Of a stretch of DNA of 30,632 nt, positions 8,971-24,441 are shown piece after piece; position 1 is the stretch's first letter, and each line of letters starts with the position of its first letter. A program made the translations under genes and the position numbers. Source of the stretch: a virus; the IMG/VR virus record IMGVR_UViG_3300024430_000007, positions 1-30,632 of that record. One strand, 5' to 3'. Below the pieces are notes generated by a model that was not told the origin of the DNA, searched no databases, and saw only the letters and a list, made by a program, of their open reading frames with translations.

Positions 8971-8993
8971 CGGACCGTCCTTTCGTTGACCCG

Positions 8994-9275
8994 CCGTGCC
9001 ATGCCCGGCCCAACCGTGCCCGGCCTAGCCACAACCTGCCATTCCGAGCCTGCCACGCCGCGCCGTGCCGATCCCGGCCCTACCAAGCACCACCGAACCT
9101 GGCCTGCCGTGCCGAGTATCGCCACAACGGACCACGCCCAGCCGGTCCGGGCCCTGCCTTGCCCAACCTAGCCCTGCCTGCCGCGCCACGCCTTGCCATA
9201 CCGCACCCAGCCCTGCCGAGCCTGCCGCGCCGTGACCCACCTCACCGCGCCGAGCCGCGCCCTGCGCTGCCTGCC
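8994..9275 (-). repeat. Pentanucleotide-periodic array (GG every 5 nt on the transcribed strand)
   Basis: This fills nearly the whole 309-base gap between the MuF-like gene (start 8970) and the 144-residue gene (stop 9280). On the plus strand CC recurs every 5 bases, as in GTGCC ATGCC CGGCC, for about 57 consecutive units. Only about six units lack CC and there are four one-base phase slips. On the minus strand, the transcribed sense, this reads GG followed by three variable bases, mostly C/T-containing. The three variable bases are not conserved, so ordinary copying of a fixed unit does not explain it. Open frames within it are composition artefacts. Confidence 0.9.
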
Positions 9276-9279
9276 TTCG

Positions 9280-9714
9280 TTACGCCGCTTCGGCGTCCAC
9301 GTCGCGCCGAACCATCTCCATGAACTCGCGGAAGTGCTCCCACCGCGACTTCAACTGGCGCCACTCGCGCTCCATGTCCGCCATGACCAGCCGCGACAGG
9401 AACGGGTCCGCACTGACCTTGTCGAGCGGCTCGTAGACGTGACCCTCGTTGCCGCGTACGGCGTGAAACGCGCGAATAGACTGCTCCGGCTTCTTGTCCG
9501 TCGCCTCGCGGTAGACGACGCGCACCGACCGGATCATCTCATGCGCTTGCTGGCGCCGATGCGCCTCTCCCGCCACGGCATCGTCCCATTCCAGCCTGCC
9601 ACGGAGCAGTTGGCCGGCCTCATCCTGCGCCGCGCGCGCCTCGTCAACAACGATCTGCGGGGTGAGCTTGCCGTGACGGGCGTAGACCGTTTGGAGTGCG
9701 TCGCGGAGGGTCAC
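9280..9714 (-). CDS. Conserved actinophage protein of unknown function, 144 aa
   Basis: GTG 9714 overlaps the upstream stop. The sequence (RDALQTVYARHGKLTPQIVV near the start; EWDDAVAGEAHRRQQAHEMI and SIRAFHAVR in the middle; a C-terminal WEHFREFMEMVRRDV helix) matches a widespread phage hypothetical family I recognise by pattern but cannot name functionally. It is largely helical with conserved Trp/Asp and His. It is always found next to the following 220-residue family in my experience, as here. Confidence 0.7.
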   Translation of the reverse strand: MTLRDALQTVYARHGKLTPQIVVDEARAAQDEAGQLLRGRLEWDDAVAGEAHRRQQAHEMIRSVRVVYREATDKKPEQSIRAFHAVRGNEGHVYEPLDKVSADPFLSRLVMADMEREWRQLKSRWEHFREFMEMVRRDVDAEAA

Positions 9715-10373
9715 TCGATGACCTCGACGTCCCGCGCGGGGTCGATGCGGTACGTGCCGAAGTCACCGTCGCGCTCCGGACGCCACTCGCCGACTCCGAC
9801 GCCCATGCCGCCCGCGTCGATCAACGACAGCACGCTCGCGCGCGTAAGTGCCGACGTGACGTAGACAACCTCAAGCGTGGTCGCCCACTCGGTGAACTCA
9901 GGCCGGTAGCGCAGGTCCGTGCCGCCGCGGCCGACGCGCACGACGTCCTCGCGCATCTTCGGCTCGCCGATGATCCGAGCGAGCGCTTGCCCGTCCTTGC
10001 CGACCTCGCCGCGCATGAAGAGGAACTGCCGCAGGCCGACCTTTGTGACGTCCTTGCCGTAGAAGCGGCTCGCCTCAACCGTGGCAGCCTTGAACGCCAC
10101 GACGGGAATGCCGTCACCGCCGTCATGGAAGCGGTAGCGTGCGGCCTCGTACTCGGCCTCGGGGTCCTTCGGCTGCTTCGGGGTCTTGCGCCCCTGCATC
10201 GCGTCGAGCATCTGCCGCTTCGCCTTCTCGCTGAAGCGGTGCACGATCAGCGGTGTCGTCCCGATGATCGGCACGCTGATGACCTCGACTGCGATGCGGT
10301 CGATGTGGATCGCCGCGACGTCAGGGGTGGCGCTGTTGGCCTTGCCGTTGCTGCTGGTCACCGTGGTAGCCAC
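9711..10373 (-). CDS. Conserved phage protein with Gly-rich C-terminus, 220 aa
   Basis: The motif VPIIGTTPLIVHRFSEKAKR (residues about 34-55) and the C-terminal SLIDAGGMGVGVGEWRPERD followed by FGTY are strongly conserved in a large phage family of unknown function. The repeated Gly/Arg C-terminal loop recalls the glycine-rich loop of RAMP/Cas7-like folds, but this is only a visual resemblance. GTG 10373 follows AAAGGACCCATC, the same block as before the scaffold gene. It is adjacent to portal and MuF, but its role in packaging or DNA metabolism is unknown. Confidence 0.7.
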   Translation of the reverse strand: MATTVTSSNGKANSATPDVAAIHIDRIAVEVISVPIIGTTPLIVHRFSEKAKRQMLDAMQGRKTPKQPKDPEAEYEAARYRFHDGGDGIPVVAFKAATVEASRFYGKDVTKVGLRQFLFMRGEVGKDGQALARIIGEPKMREDVVRVGRGGTDLRYRPEFTEWATTLEVVYVTSALTRASVLSLIDAGGMGVGVGEWRPERDGDFGTYRIDPARDVEVIE

Positions 10374-18822: not shown

Positions 18823-19254
18823 CTAGAGCGCCTCCCGCTTGATCGCGTACTGGATCGCGGACCCGACGCGCTCGGTCCTAGCGGCCAGCGTGCCGGCGCG
18901 AGCTAGCCGCCGGATCGCGCCCGACGAGATGCCGAGAATCCGGCTTGCCTCATCGACGGAGACCTCGTCGTCGTGGAGCTCGATGACCCAGTGCTGCCGA
19001 TTGAAGACGGGATGTTCGGTCTGGATGATTTCTCGCTCGCGCGCTACGGCCTCGGTGGCAGTCGGGTAGTGCTCAACGTCGATGCGGGTGACCTGCGGCC
19101 ACCAGTCCTTCTCTTCCGCATGCTTGCGGAATCGGCGCTGACCGGAGCGTGTAATGCCCGCGTAGAGCAGTCGGCCGTCGGCGTCCAAGAAGCGATAGAC
19201 GCTCACGGCCAGACTTGTAGGCGAACCGGCGTTCGTAGTGTTTCGGTCGGTCAT
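18823..19254 (-). CDS. GIY-YIG nuclease-like domain plus HTH protein, 143 aa
   Basis: Residues about 15-80 read as a GIY-YIG-type fold: SVYRFLDADGRLLYAGIT, then FRKHAEEKDWWPQV, AREREIIQTEHPVFN, with LYAGIT in the YIG position and a conserved Glu region. Residues about 95-143 (VDEASRILGISSGAIRRLAR) fit a MerR/excisionase-like HTH. ATG 19254 is close to the divergent integrase. The domain order and place make it a candidate excisionase or recombination-directionality factor, or a homing-like nuclease. A longer minus frame up to 20508 is the antisense shadow of integrase. Confidence 0.65.
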   Translation of the reverse strand: MTDRNTTNAGSPTSLAVSVYRFLDADGRLLYAGITRSGQRRFRKHAEEKDWWPQVTRIDVEHYPTATEAVAREREIIQTEHPVFNRQHWVIELHDDEVSVDEASRILGISSGAIRRLARAGTLAARTERVGSAIQYAIKREAL

Positions 19255-19259
19255 TCGCC

Positions 19260-19265
19260 TATTAT
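19260..19265 (+). promoter_or_regulatory. Candidate -10 element (TATTAT) for integrase
   Basis: TATTAT ends 10 bases before the chosen integrase ATG 19276 and is the most AT-rich spot in the 21-base divergent gap. It would give a nearly leaderless transcript. No convincing -35 is visible. The same bases read ATAATA on the opposite strand, so a minus-strand use is also conceivable. Confidence 0.4.
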
Positions 19266-19275
19266 GCTCCGCGCG

Positions 19276-20715
19276 ATGGCGGAATGGGCCGGAATCGTCC
19301 GCGTCAGCCACATGGGAGCACGACGCGAAGGCGCGCAAGACTTCCACGCCGACCGCGACCAGATCGCGCTCATCAACCGAGCTGTCCCTAAAGGCGACCG
19401 GGTCCACATTCTCGCCCCGGAGCTGAACGTGTCCGGCGGGCTGCCGCTGGAGGAACGGCCGGCGCTGCTCGCCGCCGTCGAAGGCGTGGAGCGCGGCCGG
19501 TACGCCGGCATCATCGTCGCGTACCTCTCCCGGCTCGGGCGCAACCTGAAAGAACAGCTGCGCGTCTACGACCGCGTCCATGCCGCGGGCGGGCAGATCA
19601 TCGTCGCGCAGGAAGGCATCGACGCCCGCACCCGCGGTGGCCGCCTGCAACGCAACATCCTCGCCGCGATCCACGAGGACGAGCGCGAAGCACATGTCGA
19701 GCGCTTCGAGGATCTGCGCCGAGAGGCGACGGCCGCGGGCGTGTGGCAGCGCCGGCAGACGCCGCTCGGCTACAGCCGGGACCCCGGCACCCGGCGGCTC
19801 GCGCCGAACCGCGACGCCAACCGGGTCAGAGCGGCGTTCGCTGCGCGCGCCAACGGCGACAGCGTCTCGAGCATCGCCCGGACGCTCGGAATGACGACGA
19901 GCGGAACGAGGCACCTGCTGCGAAACCGCGTCTACCTCGGCGAGTTGCGCGTCGGGGACCACATCAACCCGAGTGCTCACCCCGCGCTGATCACCGAGGA
20001 CACGTGGGTCGCGGCGCAGATCCCGAGGACCGTCCGGCCCGCGCTGCGTGACCGGGAGGTCGCGCTTCTCGCCGGCCTTGCCCGGTGCTGCGGATGCGGG
20101 CATCTGATGAGCAGGATGAACACGAGCAATGTGGTCTACGCGTGCCACCGTGACCACAGCGCCGGACGGTGCGCGGCGCCCGCGGCGATCACGGCGCGCC
20201 TCGTCGACGAGTACGTTGAGCGTGTCGCGGTCGCGCAGCTCGCGCGGCTCACGACCCGCGCGGTACGCGACGACGGCGCCGTGGAGCGCGCCCGGAGCGC
20301 GGTCGCGTCCGCTGAGCGCGAGCTCGCCGCGTACGTCGAGGCGGTGAGCGCAGCCGACATCGGCGCCGAGGCGTTCCGGGTGGGCGCCCAGGCCCGTCAG
20401 CGCGCGGTCGACGATGCGCGCGCCGGCCTCGAAGCGACGGTCGCCGCGCGGGTCCCGTCCGTGCCGGCTGACATCGCGGACCGCTACCGGGGCATGTCGG
20501 TGACGCATCGCAACCGCCTCCTACGCAGCCTCGTCGAGACCGTGCTCGTCGCTCGGTCGGGCCGCGGGCGTGTCGTGCCGGTCGAGGCGCGAGTTCGGGT
20601 GATCGTCGCCGGCGCGGGCATCGCCGGTGGCCGGCATCATGGCGGCGGCGCGCCGCTCCCGCTCCGCGTCATCGAACTGCCCGACGGTGACGACCCACGT
20701 GTGCTCGGGGTGTAG
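19276..20715 (+). CDS. int: Large serine recombinase (phage integrase), 479 aa
   Basis: This catalyses site-specific integration. Catalytic Ser11 sits in GIVRVSHMG, and YLSRLGRN (Ser85-Arg86, Arg89) is the second catalytic motif. The recombinase domain follows (PLGYSRDPGTRRLAPN, DSVSSIARTLGM, RNRVYLGEL), then a zinc ribbon (CCGCG at 271-275, Cys290, Cys299) and a coiled coil (about 325-400). ATG 19276 is preferred to an in-frame ATG at 19264 because the catalytic domain begins there. The length of 479 fits the family. The 3' 195 bases overlap an antisense gene. Confidence 0.95.
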   Translation: MAEWAGIVRVSHMGARREGAQDFHADRDQIALINRAVPKGDRVHILAPELNVSGGLPLEERPALLAAVEGVERGRYAGIIVAYLSRLGRNLKEQLRVYDRVHAAGGQIIVAQEGIDARTRGGRLQRNILAAIHEDEREAHVERFEDLRREATAAGVWQRRQTPLGYSRDPGTRRLAPNRDANRVRAAFAARANGDSVSSIARTLGMTTSGTRHLLRNRVYLGELRVGDHINPSAHPALITEDTWVAAQIPRTVRPALRDREVALLAGLARCCGCGHLMSRMNTSNVVYACHRDHSAGRCAAPAAITARLVDEYVERVAVAQLARLTTRAVRDDGAVERARSAVASAERELAAYVEAVSAADIGAEAFRVGAQARQRAVDDARAGLEATVAARVPSVPADIADRYRGMSVTHRNRLLRSLVETVLVARSGRGRVVPVEARVRVIVAGAGIAGGRHHGGGAPLPLRVIELPDGDDPRVLGV

Positions 20716-21507: not shown

Positions 21508-21701
21508 CCCCGACAGCCGAACAGCTCCGCGAAGCCGAAGCAGCCCACCGGGCTGCCTTTCGGCGTTACGAGGAAACCGCCCAGCGCCGCAACCAGCTTG
21601 TGCGTGAAGCGCTCGCGAGCGGCGCGTGGACGCAGCGGCAGGTCGCCGCGACACTTGGCGTGACTCCGGGGCGAGTCGGGCAGATCGCGTCACGCCGCTA
21701 G
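21504..21701 (+). CDS. Small HTH DNA-binding protein, 65 aa
   Basis: A TTG start at 21504 overlaps the preceding TGA. The N-terminal helix EQLREAEAAHRAAFRRYEET and the C-terminal WTQRQVAATLGVTPGRVGQI resemble sigma-region-4/HTH modules. Expressed from the leaderless promoter with twin repeats, it is a candidate phage repressor or antirepressor of the switch. It ends 12 bases inside the convergent methyltransferase 3' end. Confidence 0.65.
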   Translation: MTPTAEQLREAEAAHRAAFRRYEETAQRRNQLVREALASGAWTQRQVAATLGVTPGRVGQIASRR

Positions 21702-22472
21702 GTCCCCCTTCGCAACCCTCACAGCGGCGAGGAGATAGTGGCCGATGTACTCCGTGAACGCGGGCGGAATCGCGTCATTCAACTCGTCCTTCGTCATCCA
21801 GTCGATGCCCATCGCGCTCGCCGCCGCGGCCTTTGAGCAATTCCCGCCGCCGGTCACGGAGACGAAAGCGGTCATCTCGTCCAGTTCGCCCTGGTGCAGC
21901 CGCCGCTTGTCCGGCACGTAGAGCAGCGGGTGATGGCCGCACGGCGGGACCATCACGGGGAAGTTCGTCTCGAACAGGCGGTGGCGAATCACCCGAAGCC
22001 CGGGGAACGAGGTGCCGCACAGCCGCACCGGGTTCTCGAGCGGCGCTCCCTCCACGTTCTCGATGACGTACGGCAGGCCCGTGGCCTGCAGCATCTGGCG
22101 GGCTGGCCCGATCAGGTCCGGGTGGTCATCGCGTCGCCCTGCGAGGCCCGTGATGTCGCTGTAACGCGGACACGGCGGGGACGCGTGGACAGCGTCGAAG
22201 CGGCCCAGGCAGTGAGGCAGCATTCCCTCCAGAGCCGATTTGCGTGGCGACTCATGCCAGCACCCGCGGAGCACGTCGCGCGACATGGCGAGCGCGTCGG
22301 CGTGAAAGAACTCGTACGGGTAATTCGGCTGCGGCTCGATGTCCACGCCGACGACATCGAACCCTGCATCGTGGTAGCCCTTAGCCGCCCCGCCGGCGCC
22401 GCAGAAGAGGTCGAGCAACCGGGGTCGGGTCAGGTTGAACTCCGGGCTCGACCCCGGATGCCCCGTGCTCAT
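21690..22472 (-). CDS. C5-cytosine DNA methyltransferase (copy 1), 260 aa
   Basis: This transfers a methyl group from SAM to cytosine C5. Motif I is DLFCGAGGAAKGYHDAGFD (about 21-39). The nucleophile Cys101 is in ASPPCPRYSD, motif VI ENV is at 138-140, and motifs IX-X are likely IDWMTKDELNDAIPPAFTE. Length of 260 is short, with a small target-recognition region, typical of phage solo methyltransferases. The N-terminus is about 14 residues longer than copy 2. ATG 22472 lies in the 27-base shared cassette. It likely protects phage DNA. Confidence 0.9.
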   Translation of the reverse strand: MSTGHPGSSPEFNLTRPRLLDLFCGAGGAAKGYHDAGFDVVGVDIEPQPNYPYEFFHADALAMSRDVLRGCWHESPRKSALEGMLPHCLGRFDAVHASPPCPRYSDITGLAGRRDDHPDLIGPARQMLQATGLPYVIENVEGAPLENPVRLCGTSFPGLRVIRHRLFETNFPVMVPPCGHHPLLYVPDKRRLHQGELDEMTAFVSVTGGGNCSKAAAASAMGIDWMTKDELNDAIPPAFTEYIGHYLLAAVRVAKGDLAA

Positions 22473-23669: not shown

Positions 23670-23794
23670 GCCGCCTCGCCTCCCTCGTACGGCTTCCACC
23701 CGGCGGCGGCGAGCTCGCGGGCTTCCCGCACGGTCGAGGCGGGGTACGCGCTGACGTGGCCGTTGCTCATGTGGCCGAGGCGATGAACGGTCAC
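23666..23794 (-). pseudogene. Truncated second copy of the HTH protein N-terminus, 42 aa
   Basis: GTG 23794 overlaps the methyltransferase 2 stop. The frame keeps about the first 35 codons of the double-HTH gene (identical through AAAGWKP) and then diverges to YEGGEAA and a stop. It lacks most of both DNA-binding regions. It may be a decaying fragment or a short product made for coupling. Confidence 0.65.
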
Positions 23795-23796
23795 GC
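23690..23796. repeat. Direct repeat copy 2 (about 107 bp)
   Basis: Second copy of the 23098-23204 repeat. It lies immediately after the second methyltransferase gene. Two copies 592 bases apart, same orientation, allow deletion or duplication by recombination. Confidence 0.9.
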
Positions 23797-24441
23797 CGCG
23801 TCCTCCCACAGGCGCTCGGCGAGCTGATTCCCGATGAATTCCGTGTAAGCGGGCGGGATTGCCTCCGAAAGCTCCTCGAGCGTCATCCAGTCGATCCCCA
23901 TCGCGCGCTGCTGCACGTCGAGCGGGATGCGGTAGACGCCAACCTCGACGGTGCGACGCGTGTTCTTCCCGCGGTTCGTCGCCGCAGGGAAGCGCGGGGC
24001 GTGCCGGCCGTGCGCGCAGGGCATCCCCATGAGTGGCACGTTGCTCTCGAATAGGCGGTGACGCTGCACGTCCAGCCCGAATCCCGTCCCGCAGAGTTGC
24101 ACCGGATTCTCGAGCGGGGCGCCCGGCACGTTCTCGATCACGTACGGGATCGCCGCTGACCTAAGCCGCCTACGCGTCGCGGGGATCAGGTTAGGGTGAC
24201 CACCAACTCGCCTTGTGCGCTGGTAGGCGGTGAACGCTTGGCATGGCGGGGACGCATGTACGACGTCGAACTCACGGACGAAGCTATCGAGGTATCCGAG
24301 CGCGTCGCACTGAACGAACTCAAACGGGTAGTTCGACTGCGGCTCCTTGTCGACGCCGACGACATCGAACCCTGCATCGTGGTAACCCATCGCCGCGCCG
24401 CCTGCGCCGCAGAACAAGTCGAGTAGACGTGGACGCGTCAC
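23791..24441 (-). CDS. C5-cytosine DNA methyltransferase (copy 2), 216 aa
   Basis: Motif I LLDLFCGAGGAAMGYHDAGF is nearly identical to copy 1 (residues 6-25). The nucleophile Cys67 lies in ASPPCQAFTAY, ENV at 103-105 and IDWMTLEELSEAIPPAYTE near the end. It is about 44 residues shorter than copy 1: an insertion between motif I and motif IV of copy 1 is absent. GTG 24441 overlaps the previous stop. Two related enzymes in one phage probably have different target sites. Confidence 0.9.
   Translation of the reverse strand: MTRPRLLDLFCGAGGAAMGYHDAGFDVVGVDKEPQSNYPFEFVQCDALGYLDSFVREFDVVHASPPCQAFTAYQRTRRVGGHPNLIPATRRRLRSAAIPYVIENVPGAPLENPVQLCGTGFGLDVQRHRLFESNVPLMGMPCAHGRHAPRFPAATNRGKNTRRTVEVGVYRIPLDVQQRAMGIDWMTLEELSEAIPPAYTEFIGNQLAERLWEDAA

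What the first reader, a model, noticed from the sequence alone, without database searches (positions are those of the whole stretch)
8994..9275. Long 5-base periodic array with GG every fifth base on the mRNA strand
About 57 consecutive pentamers keep a CC dinucleotide (plus strand) in phase. Only about six units lack it and there are four one-base slips, while the other three bases drift freely. The array fills nearly all of the only gap over 300 bases in the window, between the 144-residue gene and the MuF gene. On the transcribed minus strand this is GG-N3-GG-N3 for 280 bases, the textbook pattern for tandem two-quartet G-quadruplexes, which could form in RNA ahead of the MuF gene or in displaced ssDNA. 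It may set expression, pausing or RNA stability in the late operon, or be a packaging/recombination signal. Strict dinucleotide conservation with free spacers argues for selection on GG rather than for simple slippage. I know no named family for it.
Basis: partly seen in the sequence, partly recalled or inferred. Interest (0 to 1): 0.78.

Follow-up and report, generated by a model that had tools for sequence, protein, structure and literature searches.

The report
Phage RNA-guide array with Vipr gene
The odd five-base repeat is a tandem set of guide RNAs belonging to a VIPR system, a recently described CRISPR-like weapon that phages use against rival phages; the gene for its RNA-binding protein sits two genes upstream.

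Summary
The period-5 array is real, but the evidence does not favour a G-quadruplex or late-operon element. It is best read as the guide (vrRNA) array of a VIPR system, reported in 2026 (PMC13142463). On the minus strand it reads GGY-NN. The 220-aa gene two positions upstream is Vipr: its family profile matches the solved SUSP1 Vipr (PDB 36pp, E 2.5e-10) and its predicted structure is a Csm3/Cas7-type RAMP fold (Z 11.4). The 144-aa gene between them is the likely accessory gene (vap). A search for arrays alone returned 120 phage loci; 67 carry this Vipr family, and all 129 arrays near it lie on its strand. A search for Vipr found an array in 38 of 45 phage loci. In relatives, the best guide matches follow the published 1-nt-skip code with the skipped base at codon position 3, and several hit rival vipr genes. 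No significant target was found for this window's own guides. Cultured Gordonia and Mycobacterium smegmatis phages carry the same cassette, so it is testable. Verdict: genuine, a new member of a very new kind.

The parts
9711..10373 (-). vipr: 220-aa RAMP protein (PHROG 4652)
   Evidence: PDB 36pp SUSP1 Vipr: E 2e-4 alone, E 2.5e-10 with the profile of 43 relatives; AlphaFold2 model of Csm3/Cas7 fold, Z 11.4
9280..9714 (-). likely vap accessory gene: 144 aa (PHROG 15946)
   Evidence: Found beside vipr in most relatives; model pLDDT 96, weak winged-helix-like resemblance, Z up to 5.9
8993..9275 (-). vrRNA (guide) array: GGY-NN units with GGCA marks, five modules
   Evidence: Periodicity, parse, same-strand linkage to vipr in relatives
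9272..9275 (-). opening GGCA mark
   Evidence: Sequence; many related arrays also begin right after GGCA
9223..9271 (-). module 1: NN = AG AG GC TC GC GA GG AC GC, then GGCA
9179..9222 (-). module 2: NN = TC AG TG GC AT AA GT GC, then GGCA
9105..9178 (-). module 3: NN = AG TA TG AA AG CC CC TG GT CC GT GA TC AC, then GGCA (long; may be two fused)
9051..9104 (-). module 4: NN = CA TC GG TT AG CG TC AC GC GT, then GGCA
8993..9050 (-). module 5, last: in-phase NN = TC AT AG GT TA CG AC TG CG AT AC GG (no closing GGCA)
   Evidence: Own in-phase reading of the array printed

Best explanation
This is a VIPR locus in a phage: vipr (220 aa), likely vap (144 aa) and a five-module vrRNA array, all on one strand, placed between the portal and MuF head genes. 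The array is transcribed (inferred). Vipr, a single-domain RAMP like the Csm3/Cas7 backbone subunit, coats the GGY-NN repeats (inferred from the published system). The GGY bases are held by protein and the NN pairs face target DNA, reading two bases and skipping one, so that a module of about 10 units names a roughly 30-bp target. GGCA marks set module boundaries (their regular spacing is shown; what they do is inferred). The complex represses genes of competing phages, including rival vipr genes. Shown here: the protein family and predicted fold, the array grammar, strict strand linkage of array and vipr, and code-consistent guide-target matches in relatives. Not shown: expression, RNP formation, or the targets of this window's own guides.
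For: Vipr identity: PDB 36pp at E 2.5e-10 and RAMP fold. Array-first search: 67 of 120 loci hold vipr; in the 65 where an array was also called it lies within 1.5 kb, 129 of 129 nearby arrays on the vipr strand; Vipr-first: 47 of 47 and 34 of 34. Grammar G-G-Y fixed, N-N free: entropies 0.39, 0.65, 1.04, 1.95, 1.98 bits over 222 modules. GGCA marks mostly at 5n+4 spacing, modes 49 and 54. Skip-1 guide-target matches: 6 guides at score 28 or more, against 0-2 in each of 12 shuffled sets; 5 of the 6 are sense-strand with the skip at codon position 3, and 3 of the 6 lie in vipr genes. The published system has the same parts and code (PMC13142463).
Against: No significant target for the window's own guides. 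53 of 120 array-first loci gave no member of this Vipr family, perhaps because other Vipr types lie beyond the profile (not tested). No 3' tail like that of the type II vrRNAs was seen in the flanks. Sequence similarity to SUSP1 Vipr is confined to its C-terminal part. No transcript data.
Confidence: 0.93

Rival explanations
1. Tandem two-quartet G-quadruplexes in the RNA or displaced strand that tune expression, pausing or packaging of the late operon.
For: GG every five bases for 280 bases; RNA folding of the array is more stable than shuffles, z -2.9 (that program scores ordinary pairing, not quadruplexes).
Against: Third base is held as a pyrimidine and GGCA marks are regular, neither needed for quadruplexes. 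The neighbourhood is not kept: MuF relatives in 3 of 84 vipr loci, cassette near integrase and excise genes in UmaThurman. Linkage to a RAMP gene on the same strand is unexplained.
Confidence: 0.02
2. A decayed VIPR array: vipr and array are present but the guides are no longer maintained.
For: No target found for its guides; 7 of 41 in-phase units are off consensus; module 3 is unusually long.
Against: The off-consensus rate equals the family mean (GGC plus GGT is 81% over 222 modules); vipr and vap are intact open frames; IMG/VR samples few of the phages it could meet.
Confidence: 0.08
3. An ordinary degenerate microsatellite spread by slippage, or a repetitive protein-coding tract.
For: Open frames run across parts of the array, and two cultured phages have proteins annotated there. 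Locally, L132 has a true tandem duplication.
Against: Slippage does not fix three positions while leaving two near-random in 222 modules. Units of 5 and 4 bases do not keep a reading frame. Strand linkage to vipr is 210 of 210 nearby arrays, not all independent.
Confidence: 0.01

Closest known systems
VIPR (Viral Interference Programmable Repeat) systems, studied in Escherichia phage SUSP1 and a Pseudomonas fulva prophage (PMC13142463)
   Same: RAMP protein of about 20 kDa, small accessory gene, non-coding GGY/NN repeat array beside vipr, phage-borne, guide matches by the 1-nt-skip code with the skip at the wobble base, some guides aimed at rival vipr genes.
   Different: Divergent Vipr clade. 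Guides are head to tail and divided by GGCA marks rather than separate RNAs with a structured 3' tail as in type II; arrays of up to 659 units in relatives. The preprint mentions staggered and other array forms, but its supplement could not be read, so GGCA marks may already be described.
CRISPR-Cas class 1 (Csm3/Cas7 RAMP subunits)
   Same: Predicted RAMP fold (Z 11.4); an array of variable guide segments next to the gene; arrays change faster than the protein gene.
   Different: No CRISPR repeats and spacers; guide bases are non-contiguous; only two protein genes. Adaptation genes were not searched for.
PHROG 4652 and PHROG 15946
   Same: These two 'unknown function' families hold the window's vipr and likely vap (E 2e-39 and 7e-23).
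   Different: The families carry no function; this work proposes one.

Membership tests
VIPR system | Vipr protein homologous to SUSP1 Vipr | tested here: met
   PDB 36pp_D, E 2e-4 single sequence, E 2.5e-10 profile, next best hit 0.43
VIPR system | RAMP fold of the Vipr protein | tested here: met
   AlphaFold2 pLDDT 87; Csm3/Cas7 neighbours, Foldseek E 1.8e-6, VIA Z 11.4, rmsd 3.6, 154 aligned
VIPR system | Glycine-rich loop and thumb | tested here: inconclusive
   Conserved GMGVGVGEWRP segment (G189, G193, G195-R198 invariant) fits a G-loop; thumb not examined
VIPR system | Non-coding tandem GGY/NN repeats next to vipr | tested here: met
   Window array 8993-9275; entropies over 222 modules; linkage
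VIPR system | 9-16 repeats per vrRNA | tested here: inconclusive
   GGCA-bounded modules hold mostly 7-14 NN pairs, 8-14 in the window; the true RNA ends are unknown
VIPR system | Accessory vap gene | tested here: inconclusive
   144-aa gene co-occurs with vipr in most relatives, weak winged-helix-like resemblance; homology to vap1-6 could not be tested
VIPR system | Target reading by NN pairs with a 1-nt skip at the wobble base | tested here: met
   Met in relatives only: 6 guides against 0-2 per shuffled set, 5 of 6 wobble-aligned. Not shown for the window's own guides
VIPR system | vrRNA expressed and bound by Vipr; represses targets | not testable with these tools
   Needs RNA-seq, pull-down and reporter assays
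CRISPR-Cas class 1 | CRISPR repeat-spacer array | tested here: not met
   The array is GGY-NN pentamers, no CRISPR repeats
G-quadruplex element | Folds into a quadruplex in vitro or in vivo | not testable with these tools
   Needs CD or reverse-transcriptase stop assay

The most novel reading that the evidence does not exclude
A distinct VIPR lineage whose guides are stored head to tail in GGCA-punctuated arrays that can reach about 70 guides, turn over far faster than vipr, and are partly aimed at rival vipr genes: a phage-borne, CRISPR-like memory of competitors with its own way of gaining modules and of cutting or reading them at GGCA.
Probability: 0.35. Interest if true: 0.85.

Novelty: new member of a known kind. 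Interest (0 to 1): 0.66.

Why it matters
VIPR is months old; the only account found here is one preprint, with work on an Escherichia phage and a Pseudomonas prophage. This locus ties a divergent Vipr clade to it, proposes a function for two PHROG families of unknown function, and gives independent sequence support for the two-of-three code. It also shows that cultured phages of Gordonia terrae and Mycobacterium smegmatis (UmaThurman, Pipp, Ecliptus, Saal and others) carry the cassette, with the array annotated as a hypothetical protein in UmaThurman and Pipp, so guide boundaries, processing and array growth can be tested in ordinary laboratory hosts.

Tried and rejected
G-quadruplex, slippage and coding readings: see rivals. 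Targets of the window's own guides: modules 3 (both halves), 4 (two versions), 1 and 5 were scanned exactly in IMG/VR. Hits in L205 (no extension beyond the searched pairs) and L206 (19/20, but the skip falls at codon position 1 by my reading of the frame) are taken as chance. Module 1 hit L335, L336 and L337; L336 and L337 are one gene, 95% identical, matching 18/18 with the skip at codon position 3, but I roughly estimate 2-3 chance hits for so GC-rich a pattern, so it is not claimed. Modules 3b, 4a and 5 gave nothing. Module 3 against L234 (18/20) is not wobble-aligned. Skips of 0 and 2 gave fewer strong real hits than a skip of 1; skip 3 gave as many strong hits from shuffled as from real guides. 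A first local test without extension showed no clear difference between skips. Hammerhead ribozymes: no match in the window or in 13 related loci. PADLOC: no match for vipr or vap. A Hax3 match for vap (E 2e-6, with no stretch passing on its own) was set aside. tblastx of L335-L337 against the window gave only short scattered matches. Promoter and terminator scans around the array found none. Literature searches for pentanucleotide repeats in phages found nothing earlier.

Full report
What was checked. The segment 8994-9275 has a strong period-5 signal: identity at lag 5 is 0.53 against 0.33 +/- 0.026 in dinucleotide shuffles, repeated at lags 10 to 30, and it is the strongest such stretch in the window. 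Read on the minus strand, the strand of the flanking genes, it is a chain of GGC/GGT units each followed by two free bases.

Where it led. A literature search then returned the preprint PMC13142463, which describes VIPR: a mostly phage-encoded RAMP protein (Vipr), an accessory gene (vap) and vrRNAs made of GGY/NN repeats, whose NN pairs read DNA with one base skipped between pairs, with predicted targets mainly in competing phages and satellites.

The protein test. The 220-aa gene at 9711-10373 (minus) is the second gene upstream of the array. Alone it matches PDB 36pp_D, 'SUSP1 Vipr protein', at E 2e-4, the best hit in the PDB. A profile of 43 relatives (alignment A1) matches it at E 2.5e-10, next best 0.43; the matched stretch is the C-terminal part. 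AlphaFold2 gives a confident model (pLDDT 87) whose structural neighbours are Csm3/Cas7-type CRISPR subunits (Foldseek E 1.8e-6; VIA Z 11.4 over 154 residues). The solved Vipr itself did not appear in the fold search, whose library ends in April 2026. The family is PHROG 4652, unknown function. Pfam and PADLOC have nothing.

The linkage test, in both directions. Starting from arrays with no protein information, 67 of 120 loci hold a member of this Vipr family; in the 65 where the array finder also called an array, it lay within 1.5 kb of vipr, and all 129 such arrays are on the strand of vipr. Starting from Vipr, 38 of 45 distinct viral loci and 26 of 37 bacterial-genome loci hold an array, with 47 of 47 and 34 of 34 nearby arrays on the same strand. 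The loci are not all independent (L070 and L166 are one contig). The 144-aa gene between vipr and array in the window (9280-9714) is PHROG 15946 and lies beside vipr in most relatives; it is the likely vap. Its model is confident (pLDDT 96), with only weak resemblance to winged-helix DNA-binding proteins (Z up to 5.9), so its function is inferred.

Array grammar. In 222 GGCA-bounded modules from the window and its relatives, the five positions of the unit have entropies 0.39, 0.65, 1.04, 1.95 and 1.98 bits: G, G, Y held, N, N nearly random. These modules were chosen by their GGCA bounds and in-phase length, which favours the first positions at the module start only. GGCA marks are mostly spaced 5n+4 bases, most often 49 or 54, so a module is about 7-14 NN pairs, close to the 9-16 repeats of published vrRNAs. 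Many arrays begin right after a GGCA and end with GGCA-GGY. Two relatives carry arrays of 659 and 591 units with 69 and 65 marks. Arrays change much faster than the gene: L124 and L125 have Vipr proteins 97% identical and share no 30-base array word; L134 and L164, 98%, share 27%.

Does the code hold in this clade? All in-phase NN runs (662) were compared with 3.8 Mb of phage and prophage DNA, arrays masked, under skips of 0-3 bases. With a skip of one, six guides reach score 28 or more; twelve shuffled sets gave 0, 1 or 2 each. Five of the six are sense-strand with the skipped base at codon position 3: an L193 guide covers the first ten codons of vipr in L190 (20/20) and L191 (19/20); an L185 guide lies in vipr of L191 (19/20); an L141 guide lies in the codons after the conserved GVGEWRP of vipr in L134 and L164 (19/20), while by my own count its own vipr fits less well (about 15/20); an L124 guide hits a DUF1360 protein gene of L125 (20/20 over ten units); an L195 guide hits an SNF2-type helicase gene of L186 (22/24). 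The sixth (L078) is not wobble-aligned. [quoted passage not shown] The numbers are small; the case rests on the combination.

The window's own guides. No target is claimed. Six exact scans of IMG/VR gave hits at about the level expected by chance. Two leads remain: module 1 fits 18/18 with the skip at codon position 3, on the antisense strand, in a 140-aa gene shared by L336 and L337; module 4 fits a portal gene of a relative 17/20, also with the skip at codon position 3 by my reading and antisense.

The array does not stay with the MuF gene: the window MuF has relatives in only three of the 84 vipr loci searched, and in Gordonia phage UmaThurman the cassette lies near excise and integrase genes. 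Quadruplexes need neither the pyrimidine nor the GGCA marks. Slippage does not hold three positions and free two. Coding is disfavoured by units of 5 and 4 bases that do not keep frame; UmaThurman gp40 and Pipp gp43 are arrays annotated as proteins.

Reach. Cultured phages hold the family: Gordonia phages Pipp, Ecliptus, ODay and UmaThurman (61-64% identity) and a set of M. smegmatis phages such as Saal (47%), annotated as hypothetical proteins; arrays with GGCA marks are beside it in the six records read. Bacterial records with relatives include Thermoactinospora, Streptomyces, Microbacterium, Rhizobiales and Clostridia. The window phage is probably temperate: it has an integrase of PHROG 95 that also resembles DNA invertases (18973-20715).

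Limits. The preprint's supplement was not readable, so the type of this locus and whether GGCA marks are already described are open. Expression, processing and binding are inferred. The chance expectation in IMG/VR is my own rough estimate, since the tool does not state its size in bases.

Noticed in passing
L338:3131-3454 (UmaThurman gp40) and L341:3117-3386 (Pipp gp43): Annotated hypothetical proteins that lie on the guide array and are probably not genes.
   Followed up: yes
L134:6790-10650 and L164:6723-10183: Giant arrays of 659 and 591 GGY-NN units (about 69 and 65 GGCA marks) in phage contigs of 114 and 177 kb from one metagenome; they share about a quarter of their array words.
   Followed up: partly
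L132:7104-7591: Inside the array a 14-nt block (GGCAC GGCTA GGCA) is repeated ten or more times in tandem, a possible trace of how arrays grow or of slippage.
   Followed up: no
222 modules in related arrays: Off-consensus units are not random: GTC is the commonest (5.4%), then GGA, GTT and CGC, often near the middle of a module. Unexplained.
   Followed up: no
array-first loci (L001-L120): 53 of 120 loci with GGCNN arrays had no match to this Vipr profile; they may hold other Vipr types or contigs cut before the gene.
   Followed up: no
window 21690-22472 and 23791-24441 (-): Two DNA methyltransferase genes of the same PHROG (363) within 3 kb.
   Followed up: no
L185:7962-9748: Two vipr-like genes in tandem in a Lachnospiraceae contig, with an array between them and another after the second.
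   Followed up: no
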